Source: a virus
DNA length: 63,440 nt
Reading direction: 5' to 3' (one strand)
IMG/VR virus record: IMGVR_UViG_3300025133_007312
Span: 1 to 63,440 of that record
Numbering within the stretch: position 1 is the stretch's first letter; each line of letters starts with the position of its first letter. The notes under the pieces are model-generated. The model had not been told where the DNA came from. It searched no databases and saw only the letters and a program-made list of their open reading frames with translations. A program made the position numbers and the translations under genes. Positions 11,201-60,318 of the stretch are shown piece by piece.

Positions 11201-14200
11201 AATCTTAAATTAACATCGAGTTTATCCATTTCTTCCCGGTTAGCAATATCATTTAATAAATCTTCTATCAGTTGATCTGCTGGATCTTCGGGGCGAGTTC
11301 GGACAAAGGGGTTCGAAACTGGTAAACTGCGGGCAGCGCCGTAAGGACTATCAGGCATCGCAGTCGATATAGCTTGAACTTCATAAACAAGGGGACTTTC
11401 CGTATCCGCAGTCGGAAACTTAGACCAATATTTATTCCTCTCAAGCACATGACTCTCAACCATGTTCTTCATTCCATCTAAAAAGTTGGCAGATGCAGGT
11501 GCTAATTGCATTAGCATCACTGAAATTGAAGAATCGATCCATTTATAATATTCAAGAAACTTTTCAAAATCTGGATCGTTGGTCACATTTTGAAAATAAA
11601 GTTGGCGGAGTTTTTCTAAATTTTTGTACCCTTGGCGATAACGGTAAACAGGTTCGCCCATAATATTATTAAAATCTACAATAGTGGCAAACATGTTTAA
11701 CATATCTTTAGAAATCACATTATACATGCTCTTTTCAAAAGAGAAATAATAGTCAATAGGTCGAGATGAACGAGTAAATAACTCATCATCAGTTTCACTA
11801 ACAATAGAAACCATATTGGCGCTATTAATAAGTTCGGGTTTTTTCTGAATAGAGGAGTTTACATATTTTCTTGTAACAACAGAATCTCCAACAGGGAAAC
11901 CATGTCCATATCCGGGGTGTTGCATTTGAGTAATGCTGTCTAAAAACGAATATCCCGAAATATTTGCCGACCCAGAGGAGTAGTCAGGAACCACAAATAC
12001 GCCTGTGGTCCCAGTAACAGTTTCAAAATCCCAATTCATCGCTAATGTTTTAATGTCGGGAATATCATAAGGTGCAAGTCCCAATACAGTTCCTGAAACC
12101 GGGAGAAACTGATTATCTCCAGGTGATTTAACACCAAAATTAAAAGGATCTTTTGCATGAGATTTTAAATGCTCATTTTCAATTTTCTTTGCCCACACCC
12201 TACAACTAGAAATTTGAGCATTACATTTTTCCAATAATGTGCTTGTGAAATTTGTTTTATGAGCACCCACAAACATTCTCTTGTCCGCCTGAAGGAAACT
12301 TATACCGGAGGTATCAGAAATTGATGACGAAACGTCAAAACTATTAACAAGATCATCGAGCACATACTGAAAACCAGTAAACCTTACCGTATAGTTAGTG
12401 CTCGTGCTTCCAGAAACAGAACCAACAAAAGGATCTTCAGGATAAACTCTTAAAGATAGATTCCACTTAGAGTCGCTATATACACTTTTAAAAACACTGC
12501 TAGTTAATTCTGGCATAAAACCTCCCGCAGTGCCAGTTAAAACAAAGAATGCCTCATTCCTTTTTAAATTTTTTCTAACTGAATATATCTGAAAATTTCC
12601 AACATCTGGGGTTAACCAAGGTGGGTTACTTGCATCTGTCGTATGGGCACCAAAAATAGAAGAAGAGAGGAAATCAACTGAAAAAGAACCATCAATATTA
12701 TTAGGAGGGTTTGGTTTAAAGAACGCCTCACACTCAAACGTACTTCCAATATTTGCTGGAAGATCAGTGAAGTTAATAATTTCACTTTGGTCAGATGATG
12801 GTGCTGGTCTTTCTTGATATACTGTTGCCTCAAACCGATCAGGGTCAAAAAAGTCAATTGCTTTTTTTCTAACAACTGAATATCTTTCGTTCTCTCTTAA
12901 TTGATAATCGACATTATTTCCGTAAAGGTTAAGATTGACAATCGACTCATCAACACCAAAACACCTAATTAAATTTCTAAATGCTTTTTCTGTACCCTTT
13001 GATTTATAAATGTCTACAAGGTTATTATAGATATTCAAATAAATTAAGTTTTTGGTATCACTAAGTTTTGCTTCAAAATTTTCAGTTTCATTACGAGAAG
13101 CAAGGTATTCTAAAGCGGTGGCATTAGACAAAATCTCATCATTATCCATCCCAAAGGAGCGCAGGATTTCGGACATAAATGGTTGAGGTTTAGACCCACT
13201 AATCACAGTATCATATGAACGTGCCTTAACGTCTTTTAAAGCGCCCATCTGTAATTGTAGTTGGTCGAATTGACTACCCATTATCTGAGTTAGATTTCTA
13301 AGAGGGGAATTAGTTTTTGATTGATCTTCGTTGGTTATCCAACTTGGTAATGACCAATAAAGCGCAGAATTATTCTCAGCATCATAAAGTTTCCCTTGGT
13401 CAATATATGTGGTGCGTAAATCAGAAACTAGAGGGTTGGCAAGATATATAATCGGATCTTTAAATTCTGATGCTGCGGCGTCTGAAAGAACCATCGCAGA
13501 TCCTGTATTTCTCGACCCAACTGAGTATCCTGTCCAGGTTCCGTTAGAGGAGCGACCGGCATAATCTAAAACTACTGCGTCTTGAGAATCAATGGAGGAG
13601 GTATCTATGATGCCCTCATTAAACTTATAATAAATGCCCAAATCGGCATTATTGGAAAAATCGTATTTTTTTGATGAACTGACCGCTAATTCATAATCTG
13701 TATTGGTGCCGCCATTAATGCTGGTAAACCAGTTTTCTTGAATATCTTTTTCGGTCCTTGCGGTCTTCCAGATGCGGAAATCATCAAGAGATCCAGATAG
13801 TTTGCCAGCACCTTCTCCCGCATAATCAGGATTGGCGGAAAGCGCCCCCAAATACCCCACCATTGAACCTGTAATTTTACCAATTGAATCACCACCACCC
13901 ACAACGCTCCCCACTGTCTGGAATGCACCATTAACATAAAGGCGAGAGGACAAACTAGAACCATCATTTTTAAAAGTGAGTGCATAATGCCTCCATGTGT
14001 CATCATCTATAGGGTCGCCTGAGAGTATCAATTGATATTGGGAACTTACAGATCCCGATGTGAGATTGGCATATATGTTATTATCGGACACTCCCTCTAT
14101 AAACACCAAAAAACTGCCTTTCGATGCAGCATCTGATGAACCATTCCAAATATCTACGATAACTTGCCTATCTGATTGGGATCCTACATCAAAATCTGGT

Positions 14201-14778
14201 TTTTTCAACCAGAACTCGATGCTGAATCCTTTAGCGCCGTCTATGTCGATGTTTGTGTCCTGCCGAGAACCACTAGCATAAACATTTGATCCTGTAAAAT
14301 AATTTGATATTTTTTTAGTTGAATCATATCCAGGTGATTGGTTTGGTCCGCCGAAAAACTTAATATATTCTTGAGTTGTTGTAGGAGAAAAATCACCGGA
14401 ACCCCCACTGGTTATAGTTCCATAATCATATCCAATATTTACATAACCATTACTTCGGGGATATAAATTATCAAAAAAGTATTTATCGAGATAAGTGCCT
14501 GTTAATTCCCAATTAATTTTTTCACGATCTGAACCATCATAAGGATATTCATTAGTAATGTAGTCAATAGAGGTCTTATAATATTCTTCCGCTAACCCAT
14601 AAAAAGAAAAATTAGATGCAGTCGTAAAATCTACATTGGGTATAACCTGTTTTACTTGGGCGACTTTAGACTTAACGTAATCCGCCGATTCAATGGGATC
14701 ACCCACCTCACCCAAACTAGAGTCTGCTATAAGTTTGTTGCCTTGTCCCTTCTCAAATAAATCTTTAATATTTGCCAT
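5278..14778 (-). CDS. Giant baseplate-associated protein with LamG-like domain, 3166 aa
   Basis: This is the largest gene in the window. Residues about 185-345 look like a concanavalin A/LamG fold: SIEFWLKKP, then WRHYALTF, LYVNGAFQTVGSV and a closing LDDFRIWKTART strand. A second, weaker jelly-roll-like stretch occurs near residues 690-890 and ends in SSCRVWAKK. Such domains usually bind glycans, which suits a protein at the host-facing end of the tail. The rest is Ser, Thr, Tyr and Gly rich without clear family signatures. It comes after the gp6-like gene and the 488-aa gene, the region where T4-type phages keep gp7-gp10. Inferred role: baseplate wedge periphery or short fibre, possibly several T4 proteins merged into one chain. 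Confidence 0.75.
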   Translation of the reverse strand: MANIKDLFEKGQGNKLIADSSLGEVGDPIESADYVKSKVAQVKQVIPNVDFTTASNFSFYGLAEEYYKTSIDYITNEYPYDGSDREKINWELTGTYLDKYFFDNLYPRSNGYVNIGYDYGTITSGGSGDFSPTTTQEYIKFFGGPNQSPGYDSTKKISNYFTGSNVYASGSRQDTNIDIDGAKGFSIEFWLKKPDFDVGSQSDRQVIVDIWNGSSDAASKGSFLVFIEGVSDNNIYANLTSGSVSSQYQLILSGDPIDDDTWRHYALTFKNDGSSLSSRLYVNGAFQTVGSVVGGGDSIGKITGSMVGYLGALSANPDYAGEGAGKLSGSLDDFRIWKTARTEKDIQENWFTSINGGTNTDYELAVSSSKKYDFSNNADLGIYYKFNEGIIDTSSIDSQDAVVLDYAGRSSNGTWTGYSVGSRNTGSAMVLSDAAASEFKDPIIYLANPLVSDLRTTYIDQGKLYDAENNSALYWSLPSWITNEDQSKTNSPLRNLTQIMGSQFDQLQLQMGALKDVKARSYDTVISGSKPQPFMSEILRSFGMDNDEILSNATALEYLASRNETENFEAKLSDTKNLIYLNIYNNLVDIYKSKGTEKAFRNLIRCFGVDESIVNLNLYGNNVDYQLRENERYSVVRKKAIDFFDPDRFEATVYQERPAPSSDQSEIINFTDLPANIGSTFECEAFFKPNPPNNIDGSFSVDFLSSSIFGAHTTDASNPPWLTPDVGNFQIYSVRKNLKRNEAFFVLTGTAGGFMPELTSSVFKSVYSDSKWNLSLRVYPEDPFVGSVSGSTSTNYTVRFTGFQYVLDDLVNSFDVSSSISDTSGISFLQADKRMFVGAHKTNFTSTLLEKCNAQISSCRVWAKKIENEHLKSHAKDPFNFGVKSPGDNQFLPVSGTVLGLAPYDIPDIKTLAMNWDFETVTGTTGVFVVPDYSSGSANISGYSFLDSITQMQHPGYGHGFPVGDSVVTRKYVNSSIQKKPELINSANMVSIVSETDDELFTRSSRPIDYYFSFEKSMYNVISKDMLNMFATIVDFNNIMGEPVYRYRQGYKNLEKLRQLYFQNVTNDPDFEKFLEYYKWIDSSISVMLMQLAPASANFLDGMKNMVESHVLERNKYWSKFPTADTESPLVYEVQAISTAMPDSPYGAARSLPVSNPFVRTRPEDPADQLIEDLLNDIANREEMDKLDVNLRLSEIAKIIGPDSISKYTSSIKEAMKARNEEIREGRTRAVSVSSIVSESPIIYEGGSNTTNQQKHIDYTKDELKLATNITLSAPSSDVVLTKFNSPVQKLKGKGKTFFKLQNSTNPLGYSSQKGDTIAPFSLYSSSADTGYIQQVRNNYTPVNGTFPSGVTASINITNYHDDSYHQGGIPIQGPFTQEHVGGRQARHQGIVTTPQTDGDLRGESWNLDITGNAIQLTPRSYSQARATRFREGTAKKPVNIRNIKYNTGSQTIGNYSEDYEILQTSGRTINNRYFIETEGATLTNASSSYVKDLFDYEMPRYDLTGTNKSIFVERFSAPGGPETTAGGLNVFGAEYSVYNTLNYRNLTVRRALDGWYSEYTGRFGIKSGSSVSADGYDTNAAYDKTNRNPRHVVTQESTCSVIYDNWWVQHAIPQSVFQYAWVTASVSKSACNTFGYVTPFTIPSGTTSTTQSAVPFLQSTNLWVGHPDSALSNSVTCSYNGLFTVAGIQFPGDYMEGYANQLTSSTNTISPGEYFASNSGISRDIPYYFLNLNGPYQYPSWKQSRTGETPIARYHKKNNILSVSPAPSVVTLPDGNGPGQVAQYLDRRPSAFKNFVEPPVSFKNKSLESIVGDNEGNRTTIVHPYGNKKQYFSQPIGNSGSITDYIGFVEPNTQEMYDQIIDANNITLVQNKYGEIIYPRDALTGLAKTRTRTDYAETATVTDGSASFSTGSNGIDRGPLLRRSMWRDQADLRNRRISFEGTEYTPAQYPGDTHTLTSSVMPFVYTTLPNSQGYLDGAATSIYGMGSTPLTFCDTVWGDGTYVWWLINPQSLFPPNSDVDDYLSGSEYIISLFPDTGELNSPNWQTIAGYVGISSGSSVTGSWAHQTTFYPTASAYYYHRSKTIGQDQTASLNKLAWKTAQLAGKNPWFDSYEDYSQDISKVAPNFTILPEFRISEHMDYYSEFNFRKNNDKFLTLNGAPITSSALIESSGEARGFNESFFNDYSNTDFQNYFGEFSSDLDLGHISLTCNGVKKLLPYNGFYPSQRSLQLATLFSQSVGPYISGLGWRDGLAITSSFENSGALALQSALQPYYAPGIMYNTIKSGIAVDWAAYTSSVGDASNDTDANTFGINLSSSANYRIPFESILDPLSDIGIPSNSGSAVNTKLSLLYPTYTGLQQYANGVLDTGSRGFQQPREPYVYMNTDARTQGISSAEYNLYRLGINNFLAEIPTFFLEGARLKSIKSQRQDEISLVSGTAYYINLTVEKDKGVIMIDDYLNEPNNGQPYTITQYRTYNGQFFGPPVSGGYNSDEYLFNEDCPLYFDTLPEYGYFMFTENAGDPLYAPYTPPYFYGKSTATIKYVADEEDEKGNFSYKKMFEKSEIDYGNEGLYDNFTKLQKRSNFISWVTSSSGGATGVFECSSSAIGEYFSLRKTSAAVAWDLGAISANSRSVNIGQFFEWQVPQEDKNVFVGLNDNPHASASYPDVNYAIQSSADSKTGGSQIYIWEDGSNVFNPSLPYQAGGWFRILIEDNGILKYQYCPQTSQADTSYPNGNPRVGDNDTVNGAQTLYKYGDPTLWETLYTSTVVVTGTLYPDVTIREESGSITYAQVSTTDRITYPAEEGAMQLSASINTFGILTEKQSRFDDKGNLLEVVDAPDESRNRWIISPKMETPVLDFSNQPRVEQFGRGMWSGYGQLLTSSNGVTFGIEETFKEGYNPGSASLLQKCFDTPQIRKVGEVADVKKISEAIIAIPYSPSAYARSSKYAQTTPVLDRNFFRIKTRTYDFYKKWYEQNKEDNLFNIPTDNDGNAKPSESITKMLSLMDNYVIPPELDFMTYGKGRSKINPFAMYIFEFNHYLNAQDLADIWQGIMPRISTNPEMSDPSIDDNTFSHPTGNDEFFHGKQLPPDTRWMVFKVKKRASYNYFDVTPSNSDDEQFNLAFSLGKKKLPYSYNWPYDFFSLVELAQIETENTFVLPGSEISEDDT

Positions 14779-18543: not shown

Positions 18544-21500
18544 CTACTCCTCCTCATTTCTGGTCGATAGTCCTGCTCGGGTAGAACGATGTGGGTCTGT
18601 TGCAGATTCTGTAACTCCCCATGATCTCGACCCTTGGTTGGGCGTCTCTGATGGTTCTTCCATGGATTCCTCCGCATCGGAAGATGTTCTTCGAGGGTCG
18701 CTAGGATTGGCAGCGGAAGATGTTCTTCGAGGGTCGCTAGGATTGGCAGAAGTATTTTCGCCCGGTTCATGACTTGCGCCGGGAAGTCCCTCCTCGGCAG
18801 CGGTTCCCTCGGATGAAGACGGGCGGGCATTGTCAACCGTTTGTTGTGTTGCGGGTGATGAAGGTCCAACAACCGCACCAGGTGTTGGGGCGATATTTGT
18901 AGCACGAGACGCAGCATAATAAGCATTAAGTACCGACGCATTAGACCCAGGAGGGGGTAATCCCAAATCGGCACTACAGTTTTCATCGGATTCACCTATG
19001 TTTTTTGTATTAGAAGATTTTTTGCCATTTAGCATATCATTAATCCAATCCGATGGGGGCATTGAATTTAACCAATTGGGTTCTGGTTTATAATCTAGTG
19101 CCCAATAAACAAACCCAAAGGGGATAGTAAGGGGGGGACCAAAAAAGAAAGGTGCAAAAATAGTTGCGGGCAATAATGCCAAAGAGACTGCCCATATTTG
19201 AGGTTCTGGGATAAAGTTTTCCTCAATCGGGTCGAAAAGAGAGGCATCCGGTTTTGATGGAAGAACAGCATTCTTGCTCTTACAAGAACCAGGACCCACC
19301 AAGTCAGTGCATGTGGTTCCGGTTGCCCATTCCTCACCAGTCTCATATAAAGCCGTCGCCAAATCAGAGATGCCGCTTGCCGTATCGGAAACTGCCTGTG
19401 ATGATTGGTTTATGAGTTGTTGAGACTGCGCAATAAATTTGTTCACTACATGAATTAAGTCGATAATTCGTTTAGATAAAAGAATATTAATATCAGCGGT
19501 TTCCATAAACCCCTTGAAGATTAGAACCGATGATTTGAGTATCATCATCGCCATTTGCCCCGCAAGACCCTTAATGTCAAACCCGTTTAACATACTTTCC
19601 ATCATCTCTCTATTGGATGGCGCACATTTTGACTTTTCATAATTGCCACTATCCAAAAGAATAAACAATAATTGCCTTAACTCTTCTTTAGTCGCATCAA
19701 AAACAGTATCTACATTTTTAATAGTGGAGAGATAAGTGTTTGAGTAAATATTATTAATCCCTAACATCCTATCAACGGGAAAAAGATACTTAAATAAGAG
19801 AGCGTAATCTTCTGTTTGATTTAATTGTGAAATGAGGGTTCTTAAGTTGCGTTGATAAACTGATTTAAAAAATTTTGAATAAACAGGGGTCGCCTCAACC
19901 AAAAACCCATTATCATCTAATTGAGGAGTAGAGTTCTTTTCATAACTAGATCGTGCATCTCTCATGGAAGTGTGCATATTAAATGGCATCTCCACTCCCG
20001 TAATAGGAATAATATTTACAGTTCTTGTCGCGCCATTAGCAGATTCCTTTATATAATATGATTTTGTATTTTTAATAGTGGAATTAGAGATAAACGAGCG
20101 ATGGTCGTGCAACTGAGAATCTTGATCAATTATCTTTGCTGAATCTTGGGGATCTATTAATTTAATGGGCATAACATAAGAAAGTCTAAATCCAAGATGA
20201 AGTTCCTCAAAATAGTCCCCTAGGATCTGATTACTAAATTCATATTCTCGTACTTGTGGATTTTGTGGTAAGTTGGCACCACATGCATCAGCAAGAGCAC
20301 TTTCAGAATTAATTATATCCCGATGCTCAATTCTGCCGCCAGATGCAATTGCCTGAATAAAATCATCGAACTCATCAATATTAATAATTCCTGTACGAGC
20401 CCATTCAGATCCTGCTTTGGCAGTCGTTACGAGGAGTTTATTATTAATTTTTTGAGTCATTCCTGCGGCAGTTGTACTTGCATTAATAGGATCATTGGGG
20501 TCCGTATTTAATTCTACCGCCCTTATATAAGGTTCCAATACCAATCCACCGTTTCCATAATCACTAGTTGGGGGAACTTCCATTGGGCGGCGAGGGGGTG
20601 GTAAATCGTTCACACGACTAAGAAGATCACTTCTTAACTTTAATCTTTCCTGTTCTGCATTTGATAAATCTCGAAATGCATTTTCCCACTCATTAATCCA
20701 CTTATCATATTGCTGTTCTACTCGCTCATGAATCCTTGAGTCAGCAATAACTTGTGCCCGTTCCCACTTCAAAACGTGTAAAATAGATAAAGGATCTAAG
20801 TCCAGAAGGGACGGTGCTGAATATGAACCTACGTCGATGTGTGCTATTGCATGATAAAAGGTCTTTAAATGAAATAGATCGCGAGTTCCATCTGGATTTA
20901 AAATAGAAGAAGCATTAGAAACGGGATTGGCAAAGAGTGCCATAGAATGTTGAGCGTTATCAAGATCAGTAAATACCGGGACTCGTTGAAAAGTTCTTGC
21001 CGGTCCCCAATAACGCCATGGATCTCTCAAAACTGCTACCCGACTGGCAGGATCATTTTCAAGAGCAGCGCGATCACTAGAACGCATAACAGTGGGGGCG
21101 AAACCAAAGCGGAATTCAACGCCATTAAAATCTTTTAAATACCGTGGTAAAAAGTTGGGAACGAGTGTGGGGCGGATAATTTCAGACAATCCAATATATC
21201 CTTGGGGGTTGCCCCAAACGGCTCGTTCTCCGCTTTCTGGGAGGTAATTCCCAATTCTCAAATAATAAGGATCTTCTCTCCATAATTTAAACCTAGGTTG
21301 GTCAGTATCAAAATAAGAGGCATCTGGGGCACTATAAGACCTTCCATAGTCATCTCCATCGAACTCAATCTCTCTACGTCGCTGTTGCCAAGAGGTCACG
21401 CCTTCCAAAACTTCGTCTCTTACACCTGAAGTGCCTATACTTACTGCACTTAAACTTCCCCGATTTAAAACGCCTTCCATCCGGGTAATCTCTGAATGAT

Positions 21501-24500
21501 CAAGAGTTGGCGACCAAAAACTTCCTGCTGTTGCGTTTGTAAAAACTTCTTGTGTCAGTTCAGAGAAGGTACTAGTAGGATCAAAAATTAACCCGTTAGC
21601 GACTAGTGCGCCATAGAAGTGATGACCTCTACCCAAGTCAATTTCATAATCTACATAAGGTCCATGACTGGGCGATCCAAGATCTCTTTGACCAACTTGA
21701 TCTATACTCGAACTAAAATTATGCCAAAAACCATAATTATTGTTTGTCATCAACCCCGCGCTATTATTACTAAAACGAATTCCAGGGGGAAACTCAATTT
21801 TAGATGAAGATAGAACTTGATCATAGAACCACCCAGGATAGTATGTCTTGCCATCAGATGTAATTGCCCCATTGTCAAACCCCCTATCTACATTAAAAGT
21901 GGTCGGGTGCGCGGTCATCGCCGTAAACTGGATAAGAGTGGACATTCCCCTTTTTTCATCCTCTGAAACCCCATATTGATATGCTGGACTTAAAAACTCC
22001 GTTAAGTTATCCCAGTTGTCCTCCAACGCGGAATAGTCTCTTGGACTCACAGAGGGATCGGGATGCCCACCAGACAAACCTGATGTTAAGAGAATTTCGG
22101 CAGCGCGGGAAGTGTGCTGTGGATCTGCTCCATGTTTATCAATCTTTTTCGATGGGGAAGTATCTTCTGTGCCCGCATAAGGTGTATTATTAAGTCGATA
22201 TTTTTCAGCATTAGTTAGATTAGAGTCCTCGTTTAAAGACCAAATTTTGATGCCGGTAGGTTGAGGGTACGGCATGTTTGGGTTCGGAGACGATTCTAAT
22301 CCAAAATACTTTCTAAAAAGAAATCCACTAGGGGCACGTTCAATATCTTGTGATATTTGAAGAATTTCACCCGGAGATAATGTTCCATCAGTCAAAGATT
22401 TAATTATCTGTGGACTAATAAATTCCAGGTCATTATTGGCGGAACTATAAGATGCATTTAATCGCGGTTCAGTTTCGGATCTTTGGATGGGCACCATTCT
22501 AATCCATTGTTCTAACAAAATTGTATCAATCGAAGTATCCCCTCTTGCACCTACCAATTTAGACATTCGATTAGCGACTGACCAGATTTGTTGTCGTACC
22601 AAAAATTTAATTGCCACATCATAATCAGTTTCCAGTATTCTTTCAGATGTGGAGGGATCTAGTGGAAGATCAACGTTGCGATTATATAAATCTAATACCT
22701 CTTTCTCAAATTCAGTAAAATATCCCTCTTTCTCGATTTCAGACGTAATATATCGACCAATATATAATACTAATAGGTTATCTACATCCTGGGGTTGCTT
22801 GTAGCGGAACCAATAAAAGACTTGCAACGAACGTAAAAATATTTCTGTTATATAAGTTCTCAGTATTAATAAAACAACGCCACCAAGGTTAGATTTTTCA
22901 AAAGGATTATCTTTATTACTACCAAGTCCGGTTGTATTAGGAAAAGACGCTTCCAGGCACTGAATAACAGAATATTCTTGTTTAATTCGATTTTTTACTG
23001 CATCTACATCAAGCAAATGCGCCGGACATTTTTGATTTTCAATACGCATAGGAGATAAATCTAATGCATTTAAATTTTTTAAATCGAACATGGGGTTTGA
23101 ATCTGCACCAATTTGACTTGTGAAACTACAAAAAATATCACGCCATACCTCATTATAGTAATTTAAGTTTCCTGCTGGCGATGTATCAAAAAGTTCTTTT
23201 AAGTTCGCTGTATTGGTGCCCATTCTTTGGCGGGGTTGCAATTCTAAATTTTGGTAAATTTGCGGACCCATATTAAATGAATCGTCTACTAAAGATCTAA
23301 AAAAGTTATCTTGAGGGGTACGATCTTGATATCGAAGGTGGTGAAGTGGATCTAAATTCCGTCCAGAATAACAATCTACTGCCCGTTTATTGATCTTTTC
23401 TTGTGGACCAGAAATGATCGTATTCAATTCTAATTGTTCTGCTCCGGAGGATGTTTCCCTAAATGCAGTGGGAGTGTCAGCAGCCACAATAAATCGAAAC
23501 TTATCCTCCGAATCATATCCTTCGTCGATCCACCCCCACGGAACATCATAGTTCAAACTAAATCCAAGATCATTAATCTTTCCAAATAACCCCCCCAATG
23601 CTTCTTTGAACCCAGCACCAATTTGTGCGTCCGACTGAGATCCCCTTGTATCTTGAGGAGTAAAAAAATCACTATCAAAGGTAGAACCCTTTAACGTCTC
23701 TAAATCAATATTAAGATTATCCAAAAGTTTATTAGGGACATCAAATTTAAATCTCTCGGCAGGAAGATTGTTATTTAAGTTAGTTAAGGGGGAAATGTAA
23801 AGTTTATTAAGTCCAGATTCCCTATGGCAAAAAGTCCGATATGTCTCTTGAAACCCCGGAGCAAAAGTATCATGACCCCTCTCCTTGATCACAACAGGAA
23901 CTGGGGAATATCCGTATTTTTGACTATAATATCCATTAGGGTCACTCCTCCCACCAAGGGATTTTCGATAACCAGGATTAGTATTATCATAAAAACTAGA
24001 ATTTGAATTCACATATTCATATAACATTTCAGATTCGGGAAAAGGTTTTGACATTCCTTGTGCCTGCTGAACGACGTTGTTCAGCTCTTCGGGGGCGGTA
24101 TTATTAGGATCGGGGGTGTCGTTGTGTGCAGCACCCACTGTAAAACCGTAAGATTGGAGAATCTCTGCTGTAGCACCCAACCAATTTACATTAACAAACC
24201 CAGAATCAGATGGAGTAGGCGGATACCTTGCTGGTTCATTAGATGTGAAAGATTTCATTGTTTCCCCATTCTGGTCAACTGCACCGGGGGGTAAAGAACC
24301 AAAAGAGTATTGCCCTTTTCCCACTAAATCTAAAAATTCAGCATTAAACATCCTTACAACTTTACCATTAATTTTCCTAGTAACTGTGCGAGGAATAATC
24401 CTCTCGACAGTTGGTGTTACGGTAACAGTGGGGACATAAGAAACTACATCCCGATTAAACGTGGTGGCGACACTATCATACAAAGTTCCAAGCAACTGAT

Positions 24501-26844
24501 CCATTGTAAAATCAAATTTAGGATGATGTCGATTGATAAGACCCGGTACGGTTTTGCCCGTTTTAGGATCATAGTGGCAATAAATAGGGGGAATTAATCC
24601 ATCTAATATATTATCTTTCTGCAAGAGAGCATTAAGTTCTTCCAACCGCTTTTTATCTCTAGCGTTTGATGAATCAATTTGCTCCTTAATTAAATCTAGG
24701 GGCATATCCTTCTTTGATAATAAGTTTTTGCGAAGTTCTGTGTCATCTGGATCACATAGGCACTCAAATTCTTGAGGTAATCTATCAGTTATCTCTTTAA
24801 CTGTTTGAAGTACCGTGGTATATCCAGAGAGTTTACCGATATCATTAAAGAACCCCAAAACATCTTCATCACTCTCCATCAATCCCGAATCGCGTATAGA
24901 GGGATAGTTGGAAGCAAGATTTTTAATAGTATCAATAGCATCTTGACTTGCACCACAACCTAGCATCATATTTCCTGCTTCGGCAGGAGTTAAAACTGAA
25001 GATGCTGCACTTAAAAATCCACCCATTTCTTCTTTTGCTTGGTTTGCTTGTTGAGTAAGTTCTTCTTGAAGTTTTTCATCACCTACATAGTTTTTATAAT
25101 CTGTTCCACGGACTTTGTTATGCAACTCCAATTCACCAGGCAGCAATAAGGGGTTTTTGGCAGATTGTTGCGTTTGTGCAATTAGTTTTTCTTGTTGTTC
25201 TGCAACTGATGTGCTTTGTCCGCCAGGTAAATTAATCCTCGTGCTGGTGATGCCTGTTTCGATTGCGCCTACCGCTGCTGCTGTAAAGGATTGTGCGCCT
25301 GCTCCCAAAACATTTCCGATACTCATTCCGCCGAAATTTAATCCGTCAAATCTTCCGCGTCCTTCCGCCTCATTTTGCAGAGCGCACTCCTTACAAAAAT
25401 CCAAAAGCATTTTAATAATCTCAATTACCATCTTGAAGAGAGTAGATAAAAGAGCGCGAATTATACCACTCTTAATAGATTCATAAATACCATCTAGGTA
25501 ATCTACAATAGGGAGATCATCCTTTAAGTATATTGTGGGGATATCAAAAATAGTTTTTTTAATATCAGATGACAGTGCTTCCGCCTGGTTTAAAAATAAT
25601 TTTGCGTTTGTTAGAAAGTCAAGACCGCGAAAATTTAAACACTCAAGTGCTGCTTCGATTAAAGAACGAATAGGAACTTTGTTTAGGACCTTTTTGTATA
25701 CGTCATTAACAGAGGGGGTTAAATTTGATAGTTCTCTTAAGTTTCCAATGATGCTATCTCCAACAAACTCAGATGCAGAATCTAAATTTTTCTTTAATTC
25801 ATCTTTAAACTCTTGAGATCCAAATAACCTCTCCTCTGCACTATACTCAGAATAAGTTTTAGAAGTCTTTTCATTTGCTTTTTCTTTTGCTTTTTTCACC
25901 GCTGCCGGTTCAGGGTTACTAAACATCTTTGCAGTGCTAAAATCAAATTTAGGGGGATCATAAATGTAGTTATCTATAAATTCCTTAATTGGTAAATTCT
26001 CTGAATCTTTGAATAGTTTGTCAAGTTCATCGATGCTCGACAATAATCTATTATTGCGAGCATTTGAAAACGACAGCGACTTTCTAAAATTATCAAAATT
26101 TTTATCTAGTGGTTTATGGCATTCATTATCTCTCAAGACCACATAACTTGGACTATAATCAGCACTCATACCAAAAATAAGTTCCATGTCGGAACCCCGT
26201 TGATAGGTATATTCATTATCCAACATTAACTTGGAAAGTGCGGGAATGGTTTGATTTATTTTAGTAGATTGAGATTTAAAACTCAATTTTGGAATACGAC
26301 CAAACAATTTTCTTGTTTCAGCATCATATCCTTCAAGCAAACTTCTTAAGTTGTTAATCTTTTTGTATAAATCTTTAGTATTAAACCTTACCTTAATAGC
26401 GGCAGTTTGAAGTCCTAAATCACCTTCCACTATTCCTGGTAGTCCATCTATCTGTACTGCCGCAATAGATACCAAAATTTTTAAACGAGAATTGGGGCGA
26501 GGTTTAATATCCCACCCCTCGACCATTACATTCCCAAATAATTCTTGACGCTTATCGGATTGACCAGGGTTTTTGTCGTAATAATTTAATATTCTAACAA
26601 ATCCCTTTTCTTTGTTTGCCGCTTTTTCTAATCTCGTGGCAAGATCATCTCGACTTGATCCAGCAGATTTATAATCAGTTACTACAGTAACCACATAACG
26701 ATTTTCTAAATTTAACGTTCTTCCATTAACAGTTTTAGTCTCTGCGGCTAAATAATATGGTTCACTTTTATTATTAAGAGTGGTCCAATCAGTGGTAATG
26801 GTTACGGGGGGTTTGTTTAAATCTATGTTTGTTTTGGTTGCCAT
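18544..26844 (-). CDS. Giant virion protein with hydrophobic segments, 2766 aa
   Basis: A 2766-residue protein that I cannot assign to a family. It sits between the spike/lysin genes and gp25, the baseplate hub-wedge junction of the gene order. Two features are unusual for a baseplate protein. One is the hydrophobic stretches near residues 470-560 (IIRALLSTLFKMVIEIIKML, followed by a Gly/Ala-rich region). The other is a strongly hydrophobic segment in the last 250 residues (LALLPATIFAPFFFGPPLTI, continuing to FVYWAL). The C-terminal tail is low-complexity and has a twice-repeated 12-residue unit (ANPSDPRRTSSA/D). Possible roles are a tape-measure-like or membrane-contacting hub component. Start ATG directly follows the stop of the spike gene. 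Confidence 0.7.
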   Translation of the reverse strand: MATKTNIDLNKPPVTITTDWTTLNNKSEPYYLAAETKTVNGRTLNLENRYVVTVVTDYKSAGSSRDDLATRLEKAANKEKGFVRILNYYDKNPGQSDKRQELFGNVMVEGWDIKPRPNSRLKILVSIAAVQIDGLPGIVEGDLGLQTAAIKVRFNTKDLYKKINNLRSLLEGYDAETRKLFGRIPKLSFKSQSTKINQTIPALSKLMLDNEYTYQRGSDMELIFGMSADYSPSYVVLRDNECHKPLDKNFDNFRKSLSFSNARNNRLLSSIDELDKLFKDSENLPIKEFIDNYIYDPPKFDFSTAKMFSNPEPAAVKKAKEKANEKTSKTYSEYSAEERLFGSQEFKDELKKNLDSASEFVGDSIIGNLRELSNLTPSVNDVYKKVLNKVPIRSLIEAALECLNFRGLDFLTNAKLFLNQAEALSSDIKKTIFDIPTIYLKDDLPIVDYLDGIYESIKSGIIRALLSTLFKMVIEIIKMLLDFCKECALQNEAEGRGRFDGLNFGGMSIGNVLGAGAQSFTAAAVGAIETGITSTRINLPGGQSTSVAEQQEKLIAQTQQSAKNPLLLPGELELHNKVRGTDYKNYVGDEKLQEELTQQANQAKEEMGGFLSAASSVLTPAEAGNMMLGCGASQDAIDTIKNLASNYPSIRDSGLMESDEDVLGFFNDIGKLSGYTTVLQTVKEITDRLPQEFECLCDPDDTELRKNLLSKKDMPLDLIKEQIDSSNARDKKRLEELNALLQKDNILDGLIPPIYCHYDPKTGKTVPGLINRHHPKFDFTMDQLLGTLYDSVATTFNRDVVSYVPTVTVTPTVERIIPRTVTRKINGKVVRMFNAEFLDLVGKGQYSFGSLPPGAVDQNGETMKSFTSNEPARYPPTPSDSGFVNVNWLGATAEILQSYGFTVGAAHNDTPDPNNTAPEELNNVVQQAQGMSKPFPESEMLYEYVNSNSSFYDNTNPGYRKSLGGRSDPNGYYSQKYGYSPVPVVIKERGHDTFAPGFQETYRTFCHRESGLNKLYISPLTNLNNNLPAERFKFDVPNKLLDNLNIDLETLKGSTFDSDFFTPQDTRGSQSDAQIGAGFKEALGGLFGKINDLGFSLNYDVPWGWIDEGYDSEDKFRFIVAADTPTAFRETSSGAEQLELNTIISGPQEKINKRAVDCYSGRNLDPLHHLRYQDRTPQDNFFRSLVDDSFNMGPQIYQNLELQPRQRMGTNTANLKELFDTSPAGNLNYYNEVWRDIFCSFTSQIGADSNPMFDLKNLNALDLSPMRIENQKCPAHLLDVDAVKNRIKQEYSVIQCLEASFPNTTGLGSNKDNPFEKSNLGGVVLLILRTYITEIFLRSLQVFYWFRYKQPQDVDNLLVLYIGRYITSEIEKEGYFTEFEKEVLDLYNRNVDLPLDPSTSERILETDYDVAIKFLVRQQIWSVANRMSKLVGARGDTSIDTILLEQWIRMVPIQRSETEPRLNASYSSANNDLEFISPQIIKSLTDGTLSPGEILQISQDIERAPSGFLFRKYFGLESSPNPNMPYPQPTGIKIWSLNEDSNLTNAEKYRLNNTPYAGTEDTSPSKKIDKHGADPQHTSRAAEILLTSGLSGGHPDPSVSPRDYSALEDNWDNLTEFLSPAYQYGVSEDEKRGMSTLIQFTAMTAHPTTFNVDRGFDNGAITSDGKTYYPGWFYDQVLSSSKIEFPPGIRFSNNSAGLMTNNNYGFWHNFSSSIDQVGQRDLGSPSHGPYVDYEIDLGRGHHFYGALVANGLIFDPTSTFSELTQEVFTNATAGSFWSPTLDHSEITRMEGVLNRGSLSAVSIGTSGVRDEVLEGVTSWQQRRREIEFDGDDYGRSYSAPDASYFDTDQPRFKLWREDPYYLRIGNYLPESGERAVWGNPQGYIGLSEIIRPTLVPNFLPRYLKDFNGVEFRFGFAPTVMRSSDRAALENDPASRVAVLRDPWRYWGPARTFQRVPVFTDLDNAQHSMALFANPVSNASSILNPDGTRDLFHLKTFYHAIAHIDVGSYSAPSLLDLDPLSILHVLKWERAQVIADSRIHERVEQQYDKWINEWENAFRDLSNAEQERLKLRSDLLSRVNDLPPPRRPMEVPPTSDYGNGGLVLEPYIRAVELNTDPNDPINASTTAAGMTQKINNKLLVTTAKAGSEWARTGIINIDEFDDFIQAIASGGRIEHRDIINSESALADACGANLPQNPQVREYEFSNQILGDYFEELHLGFRLSYVMPIKLIDPQDSAKIIDQDSQLHDHRSFISNSTIKNTKSYYIKESANGATRTVNIIPITGVEMPFNMHTSMRDARSSYEKNSTPQLDDNGFLVEATPVYSKFFKSVYQRNLRTLISQLNQTEDYALLFKYLFPVDRMLGINNIYSNTYLSTIKNVDTVFDATKEELRQLLFILLDSGNYEKSKCAPSNREMMESMLNGFDIKGLAGQMAMMILKSSVLIFKGFMETADINILLSKRIIDLIHVVNKFIAQSQQLINQSSQAVSDTASGISDLATALYETGEEWATGTTCTDLVGPGSCKSKNAVLPSKPDASLFDPIEENFIPEPQIWAVSLALLPATIFAPFFFGPPLTIPFGFVYWALDYKPEPNWLNSMPPSDWINDMLNGKKSSNTKNIGESDENCSADLGLPPPGSNASVLNAYYAASRATNIAPTPGAVVGPSSPATQQTVDNARPSSSEGTAAEEGLPGASHEPGENTSANPSDPRRTSSAANPSDPRRTSSDAEESMEEPSETPNQGSRSWGVTESATDPHRSTRAGLSTRNEEE
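18678..18749 (-). repeat. Two perfect 36-bp tandem copies
   Basis: Positions 18678-18713 and 18714-18749 are identical, in frame within the 2766-aa gene, and encode two 12-residue units in its disordered tail. The identity at every third position suggests a recent slippage duplication. Confidence 0.9.
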
Positions 26845-41852: not shown

Positions 41853-43175
41853 TTATAAAACCTTCGCAGAAATTGTAGCAACCTTTGATCTTTCACCTTT
41901 CAAAAATGTAACATGCCCAGAAATATCAAACTCTTTAAGTTTTTCAATAACATACGCTAATCCGTTTGAATTTTCGTTTAGGTTTACATTATCGATCTGT
42001 TCTATATCTCCAGTTAAAATTATTTTGCTACCTTCTCCGACTCTAGTTAAAATAGTTTTAACTTCATGACGTGTTAGATTTTGACATTCATCAATAATAA
42101 TATAGGCATTTTGAATACTTCGACCTCGAATATAGGTTAGTGCCTCTACCTCAATAACCCCTTTTTCCATATAAGACTCCAGCATTAAATCATCGTTTCC
42201 AAATAAAAATCTTAAATTATCTTGAATGGGCGCTAACCAAACTCCCATTTTTTCTTCCATCGTTCCTGGCAAATATCCAATATCTTTGCCCATTGGCATG
42301 ATAGGGCGTGACACTATGAGTCGATTATAAGTTGGTTTCTCACCAATCACCTGCTCTAACCCAGCAGCAACAGCACACAAGGTCTTTCCACTACCTGCTT
42401 TCCCTATGAGGGAAACCACAGGAATATTGCTATTATACAATAAATCCATCGCGAAATTTTGTTCTTTATTTTTAGGGGCGATGCCCCATGATGATCCCGC
42501 CCGGTGTTCTTTGACTTTATGGAGGGGTTCGTGTTCATTAGTAAATTGCGTTAATACTGTTTTCTTCTCATTTGCCGAAGAAACCATCATTACAAATTGA
42601 TTTGGAGAAAACTGAGTTATATCGGAGATATTTTCCATATATATGTTTTCGCCTTCGTAAACTCGATCAATAATTTGATCATCTACTAAGATATCGATAA
42701 ATCCCGTATATAACTCTCCTCCATGCTCTATAATATTTTCAGGAAAGTAATCTTCTGCTATAATCCCAATCGCATCACACTTTATTCGTAAATTGATATC
42801 ATTACTAACTAAAATTACTTTTTTAGTGGGATTTTCAGTTTTTAAAGTAAGTGCAGTAGCAATAATTTGGTGATCGGCAATTGATGGGTCATAACCTACA
42901 GGGAGTTCGTCCAAGTTAGGTGAAACAGAAAAAGCAACACCCTTACCTTTGTCAATTCGGACCCCCTTATGAAGTAAACCCTTCTCTCGAAGACCATCTA
43001 AAATACGAATAATTCGTCGTGCATTTACCCCCACACCATTTGGTCTTTTTTTATGCTTATCTATTTCCTCAAGTACAATTAAAGGTATTGCAATATCATT
43101 ATTTCCATAAGAATAGAAAACTTTAAAGTCAGTTAAATATACACTAGTATCAAGTACATATATTTTTTTCCCCAT
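41853..43175 (-). CDS. phoH: PhoH2-type protein: PIN nuclease domain plus PhoH ATPase, 440 aa
   Basis: Residues 1-150 form a PIN ribonuclease domain with the expected acids at D9 (YVLDTSVY), E37 (VLEEIDK), D101 (ADHQIIATA) and D126 (SNDINL). Residues 235-440 form the PhoH ATPase with P-loop GKAGSGKT (258-265) and Walker B IIIDECQN (358-366). Two-domain PhoH2 proteins unwind and cleave RNA in bacteria; T4-like marine phages mostly carry the shorter PhoH alone. Inferred role: RNA turnover in the infected cell. The gene is read away from the plus-strand protease gene with a 90-bp intergenic region. Confidence 0.88.
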   Translation of the reverse strand: MGKKIYVLDTSVYLTDFKVFYSYGNNDIAIPLIVLEEIDKHKKRPNGVGVNARRIIRILDGLREKGLLHKGVRIDKGKGVAFSVSPNLDELPVGYDPSIADHQIIATALTLKTENPTKKVILVSNDINLRIKCDAIGIIAEDYFPENIIEHGGELYTGFIDILVDDQIIDRVYEGENIYMENISDITQFSPNQFVMMVSSANEKKTVLTQFTNEHEPLHKVKEHRAGSSWGIAPKNKEQNFAMDLLYNSNIPVVSLIGKAGSGKTLCAVAAGLEQVIGEKPTYNRLIVSRPIMPMGKDIGYLPGTMEEKMGVWLAPIQDNLRFLFGNDDLMLESYMEKGVIEVEALTYIRGRSIQNAYIIIDECQNLTRHEVKTILTRVGEGSKIILTGDIEQIDNVNLNENSNGLAYVIEKLKEFDISGHVTFLKGERSKVATISAKVL

Positions 43176-43265: not shown

Positions 43266-44126
43266 ATGTTAAAAGATGCGGTTGCAAGAATAATATTAAT
43301 GATAGTGATAATAGTAGTGTTTACTGCTTGTTCCTCGTGTGTCACCAATTCTTATTTATTTGGCGAAGGTAATCTTTTCAGGTCTAAACGACGCTCATTT
43401 ATAAAAATAAATACGCACAAGAATTTATTGATAGTAAAAACATCTTCCATAAATCGCGGGCATGTGGAAGAAGATTATATGATAAATTTTTCATCAGTCG
43501 CATCGGGGGTTATTCTTAATCATTATCGTGAAATAAGTTTAGTGGCGACATCAGCGCACGTATGCACAATGAAATATGGCAACCAACTAAATTATTTCAT
43601 CCCTGATTATTCTCCCAACAATAAAAATTGGCACGTCTTAGAAAAAAATGTTTTTAGGTTATCAGACATAAATGGCAAAAGATATACGGCGGCAATATTA
43701 AAAATAGATCTATCATCAGATTTATGTATTCTCCTAACTAAATCTATACCACATCCACACATTCAAATTTCAACTATGGACCCCCTTATAGGCGAAAAAT
43801 ATTATAATATTGCAGCGCCCCATGGAATATGGGAAAAGAAACTTGTGCCTATGTTTGAGGGGCGATTTATAGGTAAGACAAAATCAAAATTTACCGGAAG
43901 CGATTCTTATATGTTTAGTATCCCCGCAGCAGGAGGTTCTTCAGGGAGTCCCATAATAAATTGGTATGGAGACTTAGTGGGGTTACTCCACTCTGCCTAT
44001 AGCGATTTTCACCACATATCACTTACAGCGACTAATCAACAATTGCAAGTTTTATTATCCGGGTCATTAATGAAGTTGAGAAAGCAGTATGATGCATACA
44101 AAATTATTTTATCCATTAATAATTAG
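43266..44126 (+). CDS. Trypsin-like serine protease, probable lipoprotein, 286 aa
   Basis: Residues 1-22 form a signal peptide ending in a lipobox-like FTAC, so the mature protein would be lipid-anchored by Cys22. The catalytic triad of an S1-type protease is visible: His98 in TSAHVC, Asp152 in SSDLCIL and Ser226 in GGSSGSPI. Length fits one protease domain. It would sit in the periplasm or outer membrane and cut surface or envelope proteins. It is the first gene of a two-gene plus-strand island; candidate promoter element ACTAAATA at 43205-43212 lies upstream. A role in receptor removal or protein quality control is inference. Confidence 0.8.
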   Translation: MLKDAVARIILMIVIIVVFTACSSCVTNSYLFGEGNLFRSKRRSFIKINTHKNLLIVKTSSINRGHVEEDYMINFSSVASGVILNHYREISLVATSAHVCTMKYGNQLNYFIPDYSPNNKNWHVLEKNVFRLSDINGKRYTAAILKIDLSSDLCILLTKSIPHPHIQISTMDPLIGEKYYNIAAPHGIWEKKLVPMFEGRFIGKTKSKFTGSDSYMFSIPAAGGSSGSPIINWYGDLVGLLHSAYSDFHHISLTATNQQLQVLLSGSLMKLRKQYDAYKIILSINN

Positions 44127-44131
44127 CACTA

Positions 44132-44722
44132 ATGAGTCGTAAATTATTTTTCAAGTTTAAATATCTAAAACTAGAACTAGATGAGACAAAAGAAGCAACA
44201 GATGAATATAACACCCAGTTCATGAACGACTTTCAAGAAGAAATTGAGTTTCTAAACTCAATTAACACCCCAAATATCCCAAAAAATGAACCTAATTTAA
44301 CAAAAGAGGGCACTATATCATCCTCTAAAGATACCTCCGCTTATCCTCAAGAATTCAAAGAATTTTACAAAGAACTTATTAAAAGTTTCCACCCAGATTT
44401 AAAACCAGACTCAGAAAAGGAAAAATACGAAGAACTGATAAAAGGGGTAACTAGGGCGTATGAAGAACAAGAGTGGATCGAATTAATCAATATTGCAGAA
44501 CTGCACAATTTGCCCATCCCAAATTTTCCAGAGTCGTATCAGGACGAATTTGAAAAAAATTTAACCAAAATAGAAAATAATATATTTGAGATGAAAAATA
44601 AACTTTGTTGGGTATGGATGTCCAAACTAAAACCAAATAACCGTTCAAAAGAAGATGTTTATCGATTAATGAACATTGATATTGAGAAATTTAATGAATG
44701 GAAAAAAAATAAAAATCAGTAA
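44132..44722 (+). CDS. J-domain (DnaJ-like) protein, 196 aa
   Basis: The HPD signature of J domains occurs at residues 87-89 within LIKSFHPDLKPDSEKEKYEE, followed by the expected long helix. It is in the middle of the chain, preceded by a charged region of about 70 residues, with a C-terminal helical segment unlike host DnaJ (no Gly/Phe or zinc regions). J-domain proteins recruit and activate Hsp70 (DnaK). A phage copy may redirect the host chaperone to virion assembly or replication. It starts five bases after the protease stop and is thus coexpressed. Confidence 0.75.
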   Translation: MSRKLFFKFKYLKLELDETKEATDEYNTQFMNDFQEEIEFLNSINTPNIPKNEPNLTKEGTISSSKDTSAYPQEFKEFYKELIKSFHPDLKPDSEKEKYEELIKGVTRAYEEQEWIELINIAELHNLPIPNFPESYQDEFEKNLTKIENNIFEMKNKLCWVWMSKLKPNNRSKEDVYRLMNIDIEKFNEWKKNKNQ

Positions 44723-44925
44723 ACTACATGAATATCAATATCATGACTTGAGGTGCCCTCTAGGTCTATCTGTTTGGAGCGACCATTAAGGTCTTTAACA
44801 ATTATGACACCTTCATCATTATGAGGATCAATTAAGAAACTAGTTATGGTGGATGGTCCTTCACACGAGGTTTCTTTACTCTCGCGATCTGTATATAATA
44901 AAAATATTTTATCACCAATATTCAT
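44716..44925 (-). CDS. Small hypothetical protein, 69 aa
   Basis: Unknown family; a probable small beta-barrel with segments DKIFLLYTD, GVIIVKDLNG and IDIHVVY. Its stop overlaps the end of the plus-strand J-domain gene by 7 bases, a convergent junction without a terminator. It lies downstream of the tmRNA gene in the same orientation. Ribosome site is weak. Confidence 0.5.
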   Translation of the reverse strand: MNIGDKIFLLYTDRESKETSCEGPSTITSFLIDPHNDEGVIIVKDLNGRSKQIDLEGTSSHDIDIHVVY

Positions 44926-44977: not shown

Positions 44978-45226
44978 TGGAGGTGGCGGGAATCGAACCC
45001 GCGTCCTCAATGTTTTAATAGTTTGTGATACACAAGGTTAAAAGATTGGTATAATAAAACACGGTTTTGGGTAACAAGGAAACCGTAAACCCCGCTTTGA
45101 TTGCTTACGCCGCCAAAGTTAGTGCAACATTATCGTTAGCAGTTATTTGTTTTAAGCCTTTTAGTGTTTGCTTATACACCCTTGCACAAATCTACCTCGA
45201 CACCCAGTCGAATCCAGTTCACCCCC
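44978..45226 (-). ncRNA. ssrA: One-piece tmRNA
   Basis: On the minus strand, the 5-prime end is GGGGGTGAACTGGATTCGAC and the 3-prime end is GCGGGTTCGATTCCCGC then CACCTCCA. The ends pair as a 7-bp acceptor stem (GGGGGUG with CACCUCC) and the T arm is perfect. A tag frame follows a TAACT element corresponding to the conserved UAGUC region. Gene length is 249 nt, shorter than E. coli (363 nt); CCA is not encoded. It rescues ribosomes stalled on cut or broken mRNAs. No smpB gene is seen, so host SmpB is assumed. Confidence 0.92.
45105..45140 (-). other. tmRNA tag-coding frame, resume codon GCT
   Basis: The reading frame runs from GCT at 45138-45140 to TAA at 45105-45107 and encodes the 11-residue tag ANDNVALTLAA. 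The E. coli tag is ANDENYALAA. The Ala-Ala end is the ClpXP degron, so tagged proteins should be destroyed by host proteases. The insertion-like LT before LAA is the main departure. Confidence 0.85.
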
Positions 45227-45239
45227 GTAGTGTATAAGT

Positions 45240-45268
45240 ATTGTAGCAGTTATTTTTTGGAATGTAAA
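45240..45268 (-). promoter_or_regulatory. Sigma70-type promoter of the tmRNA gene
   Basis: Minus-strand reading gives TTTACA, exactly 17 bases, then TACAAT: one mismatch to each consensus hexamer with the ideal spacing. The -10 box ends 13 bases before the tmRNA 5-prime G, leaving a short leader for RNase P to remove. This suggests transcription by unmodified host polymerase, that is, early or throughout infection. Confidence 0.75.
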
Positions 45269-45277
45269 GAAATTAAT

Positions 45278-45613
45278 TTAAGGACGAAGTCCTGATTCTA
45301 CCGCTGCACTGACTAAATCTTTAATGCCCAATTCACGAAGGTCATTATCATCATAATTAGACAGCATTTGCTGTATTCCTGCACCCAAAGCGGGCATCAT
45401 TCGAGGGTATCCTCTGGCAATTTCCATGGCGCGTTTTATATAACCTTCAAATTTTTCAGTATCTCTGTTCTTCGCTGCCCGTTGCATGTCTTGGATGAGA
45501 AATTTCGTTTTATCGCTTTCACGCGATACACCTGAAGTATCATATGGACCTTCAATTAATTTTTCTACTTCTTCCTTGATAATTTTCTGAAGTTTTTCTT
45601 TTGTTAGTTTCAT
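45278..45613 (-). CDS. Hypothetical protein with N-terminal LxxIIKEE motif, 111 aa
   Basis: The N-terminus (MKLTKEKLQKIIKEEVEKLI) is a short amphipathic helix of the kind that recurs in proteins encoded nearby, ending in a Glu-rich run. The remaining 90 residues are helical and charged, with no recognised domain. The ATG at 45613 has a clear ribosome site (AGGAG, seven bases). The end of the gene is 51 bp upstream of the tmRNA gene. Confidence 0.6.
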   Translation of the reverse strand: MKLTKEKLQKIIKEEVEKLIEGPYDTSGVSRESDKTKFLIQDMQRAAKNRDTEKFEGYIKRAMEIARGYPRMMPALGAGIQQMLSNYDDNDLRELGIKDLVSAAVESGLRP

Positions 45614-60144: not shown

Positions 60145-60218
60145 AGCCACAAATAGGATTCGAACCTACGACCTACGGTTTACAAAACCGTTACTCTACC
60201 GGACTGAGTTATTGTGGC
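60145..60218 (-). tRNA. tRNA-Thr (anticodon TGT)
   Basis: On the minus strand the acceptor stem pairs GCCACAA with TTGTGGC and the anticodon stem-loop is ACGGT TTTGTAA ACCGT. The T arm is regular. CCA is not encoded. The anticodon reads ACA codons, common in AT-rich phage genes. Confidence 0.95.
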
Positions 60219-60236
60219 ATTTGTTATTTGATTGTG

Positions 60237-60318
60237 TGCTCACAGGGGGATTCGAACCCCCACGCTGCTTAAGCAAAAGATTTTAAGTCTTCCGTGTCTA
60301 CCGTTTCACCATGCGAGC
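60237..60318 (-). tRNA. tRNA-Leu (anticodon TAA)
   Basis: Minus strand: acceptor GCTCGCA pairs with TGTGAGC and the anticodon loop is CTTAAAA. A long variable arm typical of leucine tRNA is present and the T arm GGGGG/CCCCC is complete. It reads UUA codons. It is 18 bp from tRNA-Thr. Confidence 0.95.

What the first reader, a model, noticed from the sequence alone, without database searches (positions are those of the whole stretch)
44978..45226. Phage-encoded one-piece tmRNA with an unusual tag
Acceptor stem, T arm, start consensus and tag frame are all present, with tag ANDNVALTLAA. At 249 nt it is shorter than the usual bacterial molecule, so it may have lost pseudoknots. Alphaproteobacteria, including SAR11, have two-piece tmRNAs, so this argues for a different host or for gene capture from one. 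During infection, massive mRNA cutting stalls ribosomes; a phage tmRNA might rescue them, or overload host tagging.
Basis: partly seen in the sequence, partly recalled or inferred. Interest (0 to 1): 0.8.

Follow-up and report, generated by a model that had tools for sequence, protein, structure and literature searches.

The report
Phage tmRNA missing two pseudoknots
A marine phage carries its own shortened version of the bacterial ribosome-rescue RNA (tmRNA), and in its close relatives the stretch that was lost is occupied by a complete small protein gene, an arrangement for which I found no earlier report.

Summary
Window 44978-45226 (minus strand) is a one-piece tmRNA (ARAGORN; Rfam RF00023, 105 bits, E 5e-40) with G3·U70 acceptor stem, T arm, PK1, tag ANDNVALTLAA, tag hairpin and PK2. 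PK3 and PK4 are gone, replaced by a 23-nt linker. It sits upstream of phoH in an uncultured T4-like marine phage lineage, behind a conserved sigma70-type promoter. No SmpB gene occurs in 20 related records, so it needs host SmpB. The host inference is not supported: ANDNVA..AA tags were found only in permuted alphaproteobacterial tmRNAs, and 28 of 28 sampled alphaproteobacterial tags begin ANDN. Phage tmRNAs are known, so this one alone is modest. The surprise is in its sisters: 20 phage contigs carry a complete gene (ribosome-binding site, 63-69 codons, stop) inside the tmRNA gene, exactly where PK3/PK4 were lost. Both parts look functional. Rfam's model spans the insert at 79-114 bits; acceptor stem, H2 and T stem covary across it; the protein has pN/pS 0.12-0.26. 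ORF-bearing and ORF-less forms alternate among near-identical phages. Best reading: a working, host-SmpB-dependent ribosome-rescue RNA whose dispensable pseudoknot site has become a cargo site. None of this has been tested experimentally.

The parts
44978..45226 (-). one-piece tmRNA (ssrA) gene, 249 nt
   Evidence: ARAGORN; RF00023 105.1 bits, E 5e-40
45220..45226 (-). acceptor stem 5' strand GGGGGTG; pairs with 44979-44985 CACCTCC, containing the G3.U70 wobble
   Evidence: sequence; G3.U70 kept in 23/23 clade members
45180..45205 (-). helix H2, 5' strand
   Evidence: CM alignment; pair counts
45154..45179 (-). pseudoknot PK1 (GTGT/ACAC and AAGC/GCTT)
45105..45140 (-). tag reading frame ANDNVALTLAA + TAA
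   Evidence: no second-codon-position change among 23 clade members
45095..45118 (-). tag-end hairpin (H5-like, CTTTG/CAAAG)
   Evidence: pair counts with compensated changes
45061..45092 (-). pseudoknot PK2 (GGGT/ACCC and ACGGTTT/AAACCGT)
   Evidence: first stem counted; second stem by eye
45038..45060 (-). 23-nt AT-rich linker where PK3 and PK4 are missing; in sister phages this site holds a complete 63-69 codon gene
45008..45037 (-). helix H2, 3' strand
44986..45002 (-). T stem-loop GCGGG-TTCGATT-CCCGC
   Evidence: stem covaries
45240..45268 (-). sigma70-type promoter TTTACA-17-TACAAT with TG before the -10; -10 ends 13 nt before the tmRNA
   Evidence: TATAAT at the same distance in most clade members
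41853..43175 (-). phoH-like gene with PIN domain, syntenic neighbour of the tmRNA in relatives
44716..44925 (-). small ORF (MNIGDKIF...) directly downstream; the same start follows the tmRNA in L018 and L121
   Evidence: similarity seen by eye
45278..45613 (-). 111-aa ORF upstream of the promoter, function unknown

Best explanation
The window holds a functional, phage-encoded, minimal (PK1 + PK2) one-piece tmRNA. Host RNA polymerase would transcribe it from its own promoter (conserved motif shown, use inferred). Host enzymes would trim it and add CCA, and host AlaRS would charge it through G3.U70 (element shown, charging inferred). Host SmpB would bring it to ribosomes stalled on broken mRNAs, and the tag ANDNVALTLAA would mark the stalled chains for the host's tag-directed proteolysis (inferred). 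PK3/PK4 were lost within the phage lineage. That site tolerates either a short linker, as here, or a complete small protein gene, as in 20 sister contigs, so in the sisters one gene encodes tmRNA and, inside it, a protein.
For: tmRNA identity. The same gene in many independent contigs upstream of phoH. Structure under selection: 97.8% of cells pair, 9 pairs with two-sided change (0 of 500 shuffles; slid controls 40-50% paired), G3.U70 invariant, five T-stem versions all compensated. Tag frame conserved. Conserved promoter. No SmpB in 20 records up to 204 kb while controls ring. ORF inside sister tmRNAs; CM spans the insert above cut-off in 8 of 8 tested; ORF pN/pS 0.12 and 0.26; it is the only copy in the records searched. 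Alphaproteobacterial-type tag.
Against: No expression, charging, SmpB-binding or tagging data. The host is unknown; the nearest cultured capsid relatives infect Flavobacterium and Microcystis at about 46% identity, which does not favour Alphaproteobacteria. The H2 end nearest the acceptor is poorly paired in some members (5 of 18 unpaired at one pair). The records are partial, so absence of SmpB is not proof.
Confidence: 0.7

Rival explanations
1. Decoy or sabotage: the RNA titrates host SmpB or floods the cell with tagging, switching host quality control off, as proposed for the tRNA-domain-only RNA of mycobacteriophage DS6A.
For: A DS6A-like molecule inhibits tmRNA (PMC4131195); tRNA-domain-only RNAs of about 75 nt do occur in marine phage contigs L088 and L138.
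Against: This RNA keeps a conserved tag frame with stop codon, resume region, PK1, tag hairpin and PK2, none of which a decoy needs.
Confidence: 0.12
2. Replacement part: the host tmRNA is cut or inactivated during infection (by host defence or by the phage) and the phage supplies a resistant one. The tRNA domain would vary to escape.
For: Sisters L017, L018 and L019 have a re-made T loop (AGTCGGTG) with a compensated stem, and similar loops occur in unrelated phage tmRNAs L085 and L096. Escape from tRNA-cutting defences is proposed for phage tRNAs (PMC10264068, abstract).
Against: No known tmRNA-cutting defence was tested or found; the window's own T loop is canonical TTCGATT. This is a reason for the gene, compatible with the best explanation, not a different activity.
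Confidence: 0.1
3. A passive relic: host tmRNA picked up by imprecise excision or kept as an integration site remnant, not used.
For: tmRNA genes are common integration sites (PMC11915505).
Against: Compensated base changes, conserved tag and promoter, maintained in many divergent phage contigs; a T4-like lineage by capsid and baseplate.
Confidence: 0.05

Closest known systems
Standard one-piece bacterial tmRNA (Rfam RF00023)
   Same: Order acceptor-H2-PK1-tag-hairpin-PK2-H2-T arm; G3.U70; full-length model match
   Different: 249 nt; PK3 and PK4 absent; CCA not encoded; phage-borne; sister genes hold a protein gene at the vacated site
Two-piece (permuted) alphaproteobacterial tmRNA (RF04321; L224-L238)
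   Same: Tag of the same style (ANDNVALTLAA against ANDNVALAVAA / ANDNVALALAA)
   Different: Not permuted; T loop TTCGATT, against GGCRGTR-type loops in the alphaproteobacterial genes
Phage tmRNAs: mycobacteriophage Bxz1 group and Bacillus phage G (PMC4131195), Bradyrhizobium elkanii phages (PMC12656738), two-piece OM43 phage Melnitz (PMC9004378; 402 of 18,146 phages)
   Same: Phage-encoded ssrA; proposed roles are the same
   Different: No match to this gene in 50,697 phage records; none of the passages read describes PK3/PK4 loss or a nested gene
tmRNA genes with group I introns and homing endonucleases (PMC11915505)
   Same: A protein gene can lie inside a tmRNA gene
   Different: Those interrupt the T loop and splice out; here the ORF lies at the PK3/PK4 site and no intron structure was reported by Rfam

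Membership tests
one-piece tmRNA (RF00023) | covariance-model match above cut-off over the full model | tested here: met
   105.1 bits against 47, model 1-374
one-piece tmRNA (RF00023) | G3.U70 acceptor stem and T arm for alanine charging | tested here: met
one-piece tmRNA (RF00023) | tag reading frame ending in a small hydrophobic tail (LAA) plus stop | tested here: met
   ANDNVALTLAA*
one-piece tmRNA (RF00023) | four pseudoknots (typical, not universal) | tested here: not met
   PK1 and PK2 only; PK3/PK4 columns deleted
one-piece tmRNA (RF00023) | charged with alanine, binds SmpB, tags nascent chains | not testable with these tools
   needs biochemistry
two-piece (permuted) tmRNA (RF04321) | acceptor 3' piece encoded upstream of the coding piece | tested here: not met
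   acceptor 3' strand and T arm lie downstream; the marginal RF04321 hit (47.2 bits) is spurious
tRNA-domain-only decoy (DS6A type) | no tag frame, little more than the tRNA-like domain | tested here: not met
   tag, PK1 and PK2 present
self-sufficient trans-translation module | phage-encoded SmpB beside the tmRNA | tested here: not met
   PF01668 absent in 20 records, controls ring; the records may be partial
intron-bearing tmRNA (for the ORF-bearing sisters) | group I intron in the T loop | tested here: not met
   insert lies between PK2 and H2; Rfam at gathering threshold reports no intron there; T loop uninterrupted

The most novel reading that the evidence does not exclude
In this phage clade the PK3/PK4 site of tmRNA is a cargo site: the same gene yields a working tmRNA and, from an internal ribosome-binding site, a separate 63-69 residue protein. 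It would be a natural two-frame tmRNA/mRNA hybrid, or a non-permuted two-piece tmRNA if the insert is cut; one lineage (L012) even has a perfect internal promoter (TTGACA-18-TATAAT) before the ORF. The window's tmRNA is the empty form of this site.
Probability: 0.5. Interest if true: 0.8.

Novelty: new variant of a known kind. Interest (0 to 1): 0.6.

Why it matters
Phage tmRNAs have been listed but not explained. This family shows one under structural selection while two pseudoknots are lost and, in sisters, replaced by a gene. That gives natural evidence on which parts of tmRNA are dispensable. It also gives a compact minimal tmRNA to test, and raises the question of whether one RNA can serve as tmRNA and as an ordinary mRNA, and whether the tag of a phage tmRNA is matched to the host's proteolysis machinery.

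Tried and rejected
Permuted tmRNA: rejected (marginal RF04321 hit; in several sisters the hit begins in the tRNA-Gly lying just upstream). Nearest cultured phage by tmRNA: none; a longer relative, L036, matched only a 35-nt end of the tRNA-like domain in an Alcaligenes phage. Host by capsid: only about 46% to Flavobacterium and Microcystis phages, and RF00023 finds no full-length tmRNA in the immuto, Mel-JY01 and RM378 records. ORF protein function: no PHROG family, no cultured-phage homolog, AlphaFold gives a helical hairpin (pLDDT 81) with no significant structural match. ORF as the result of one ancient insertion kept ever since: not supported by the phoH tree, where ORF-bearing and ORF-less forms interleave (7 changes for the ORF label). 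ORF moved elsewhere in ORF-less phages: no copy in the 156-kb L009 record. Assembly artefact: rejected, 20 contigs from many samples with divergent alleles.

Full report
OBSERVATION. ARAGORN finds one tmRNA in the window, 44978-45226 minus strand, tag ANDNVALTLAA. Rfam RF00023 matches it end to end at 105.1 bits, E 5e-40, with the model positions of the third and fourth pseudoknots collapsed to 4 and 3 nt. The window is a 63,440-base IMG/VR virus record. Baseplate wedge proteins and phoH, and a Gp23 capsid in the larger relatives, place it in a T4-like lineage; the best cultured capsid relatives are only about 46% identical.

ANATOMY. On the minus strand: acceptor stem GGGGGTG/CACCTCC with G3.U70; H2; PK1; resume region AATAACT followed by GCT; tag; tag hairpin; PK2; 23-nt linker; H2; T arm; discriminator A; no encoded CCA. 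A promoter-like TTTACA-17-TACAAT with extended -10 ends 13 nt upstream. Several such sites per kilobase are expected by chance (mean 3.8 in 1.1 kb), but TATAAT recurs at the same distance in most clade members, which chance does not explain. Upstream and downstream ORFs lie on the same strand; a trypsin-like protease and a weak DnaJ-like match lie on the plus strand between the tmRNA and phoH.

RELATIVES. A phoH search and two DNA patterns brought in some 30 distinct related one-piece tmRNAs, most at the same phoH-linked site: a short class (238-253 nt, including the window), a longer class (276-421 nt) that retains more of the PK3/PK4 region, and an ORF-bearing class. No match exists in 50,697 phage records.

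THE NESTED GENE. In 15 loci read in full, a ribosome-binding site (AGGAGG or GAGGAG type), an ATG and 63-69 codons ending in TAA lie between PK2 and the H2 3' strand; a junction pattern finds 20 contigs in the collection. RF00023 still spans the whole model in all 8 ORF-bearing loci tested, 79-114 bits. With the ORF excised, an 18-sequence alignment (11 ORF-bearing, 7 short) pairs in 97.8% of cells, with 9 pairs changed on both sides, 0 of 500 shuffles as high, and slid controls at 40-50%. Changes compensated across the insert include acceptor pair 6 (U-A to C-G in L007) and H2; the T stem appears in five compensated versions. A caution: the structure was read from these same sequences, which favours it in the slid control, but not in the two-sided changes. 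The ORF itself evolves as a protein: pN/pS 0.12 and 0.26 in its two allele groups, with third positions dominant. Its distant homologs in other phages stand alone, with the same CA-rich leader (L039 beside tRNAs, L149 and L153 before a RecA/UvsX-like gene, the last read by eye). In records that have the nested copy there is no second copy, and the 156-kb ORF-less L009 record has none. In the phoH tree ORF-bearing and ORF-less phages interleave, and L014 carries a quite different 340-nt tmRNA among near-identical phages. L094 shows the window-type linker on the other 5'/3' background. So the site is exchanged repeatedly. In most loci the ORF has no promoter of its own, but L012 has TTGACA-18-TATAAT, 12 of 12 matches, inside the tmRNA gene.

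TAG AND HOST. A pattern for phage-like tags in 84,980 species genomes gave 15 hits, all titled as Alphaproteobacteria or groups within it except one titled only Proteobacteria; 14 are permuted tmRNAs. In a class-wide sample 68 of 76 genomes have a permuted tmRNA; all 28 tags read from its 30 best loci start ANDN. The tag therefore fits an alphaproteobacterial host while the gene form does not; a phage may need only the tag to match host proteolysis (inference). The capsid evidence does not settle the host. Gene capture from an alphaproteobacterium is not shown.

FUNCTION. No SmpB in 20 related records, so host SmpB is required if the RNA acts in rescue. Retained charging element, tag, resume region and pseudoknots argue for full trans-translation rather than a DS6A-type decoy. 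Charging, SmpB binding and tagging are inferred, not shown.

NOVELTY. Phage tmRNAs are established. In the passages read and the papers searched I found no tmRNA with a protein gene at the PK3/PK4 site; known inserts are group I introns in the T loop. The library holds only open-licence papers, so an earlier report may exist. I call it a new variant of a known kind.

Noticed in passing
L017, L018/L108, L019/L146 (T arm of the tmRNA); L085:7110-7455 (-); L096:1957-2314 (+): Non-canonical 8-nt T loop AGTCGGTG (also AGTCGATG, AGTCGGAG) in otherwise intact phage tmRNAs, which ARAGORN misses. Alphaproteobacterial tmRNAs have a different non-canonical loop, GGCRGTR.
   Followed up: partly
L138:4957-5031 (+); L088:13740-13814 (-): tRNA-domain-only mini tmRNAs of about 75 nt with encoded CCA and no tag, like that of mycobacteriophage DS6A, in marine phage contigs.
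   Followed up: no
L012:5927-5956 (+): Perfect sigma70 consensus TTGACA-18-TATAAT inside the tmRNA gene, just before the nested ORF.
   Followed up: partly
L014:2259-2598 (+): A different 340-nt tmRNA (tag ANNNNHFQSLALAA) at the same site in a phage whose phoH is nearly identical to ORF-bearing L012/L013: replacement of the tmRNA gene.
   Followed up: partly
L086, L089, L091, L095, L099, L102, L106, L110, L111, L119, L124, L135: ARAGORN calls permuted (two-piece) tmRNAs in viral contigs, with tags such as ANDDVYFEDYALAA and ANDEKFALAA.
   Followed up: no
LR756508.1:92434-92880 and 414804-414915: A 484-kb uncultured phage record with one tmRNA-length match and one 112-nt match to RF00023, both above cut-off.
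   Followed up: no
window 43266-44722 (+): Trypsin-like protease ORF followed by an ORF with a weak DnaJ-like match, on the opposite strand to their neighbours, between phoH and the tmRNA.
   Followed up: no
window 60145-60318 (-): tRNA-Thr (TGT) and tRNA-Leu (TAA) pair.
   Followed up: no
window 5278-14778 (-), 18544-26844 (-): Two giant ORFs of 3166 and 2766 aa next to baseplate genes.
   Followed up: no
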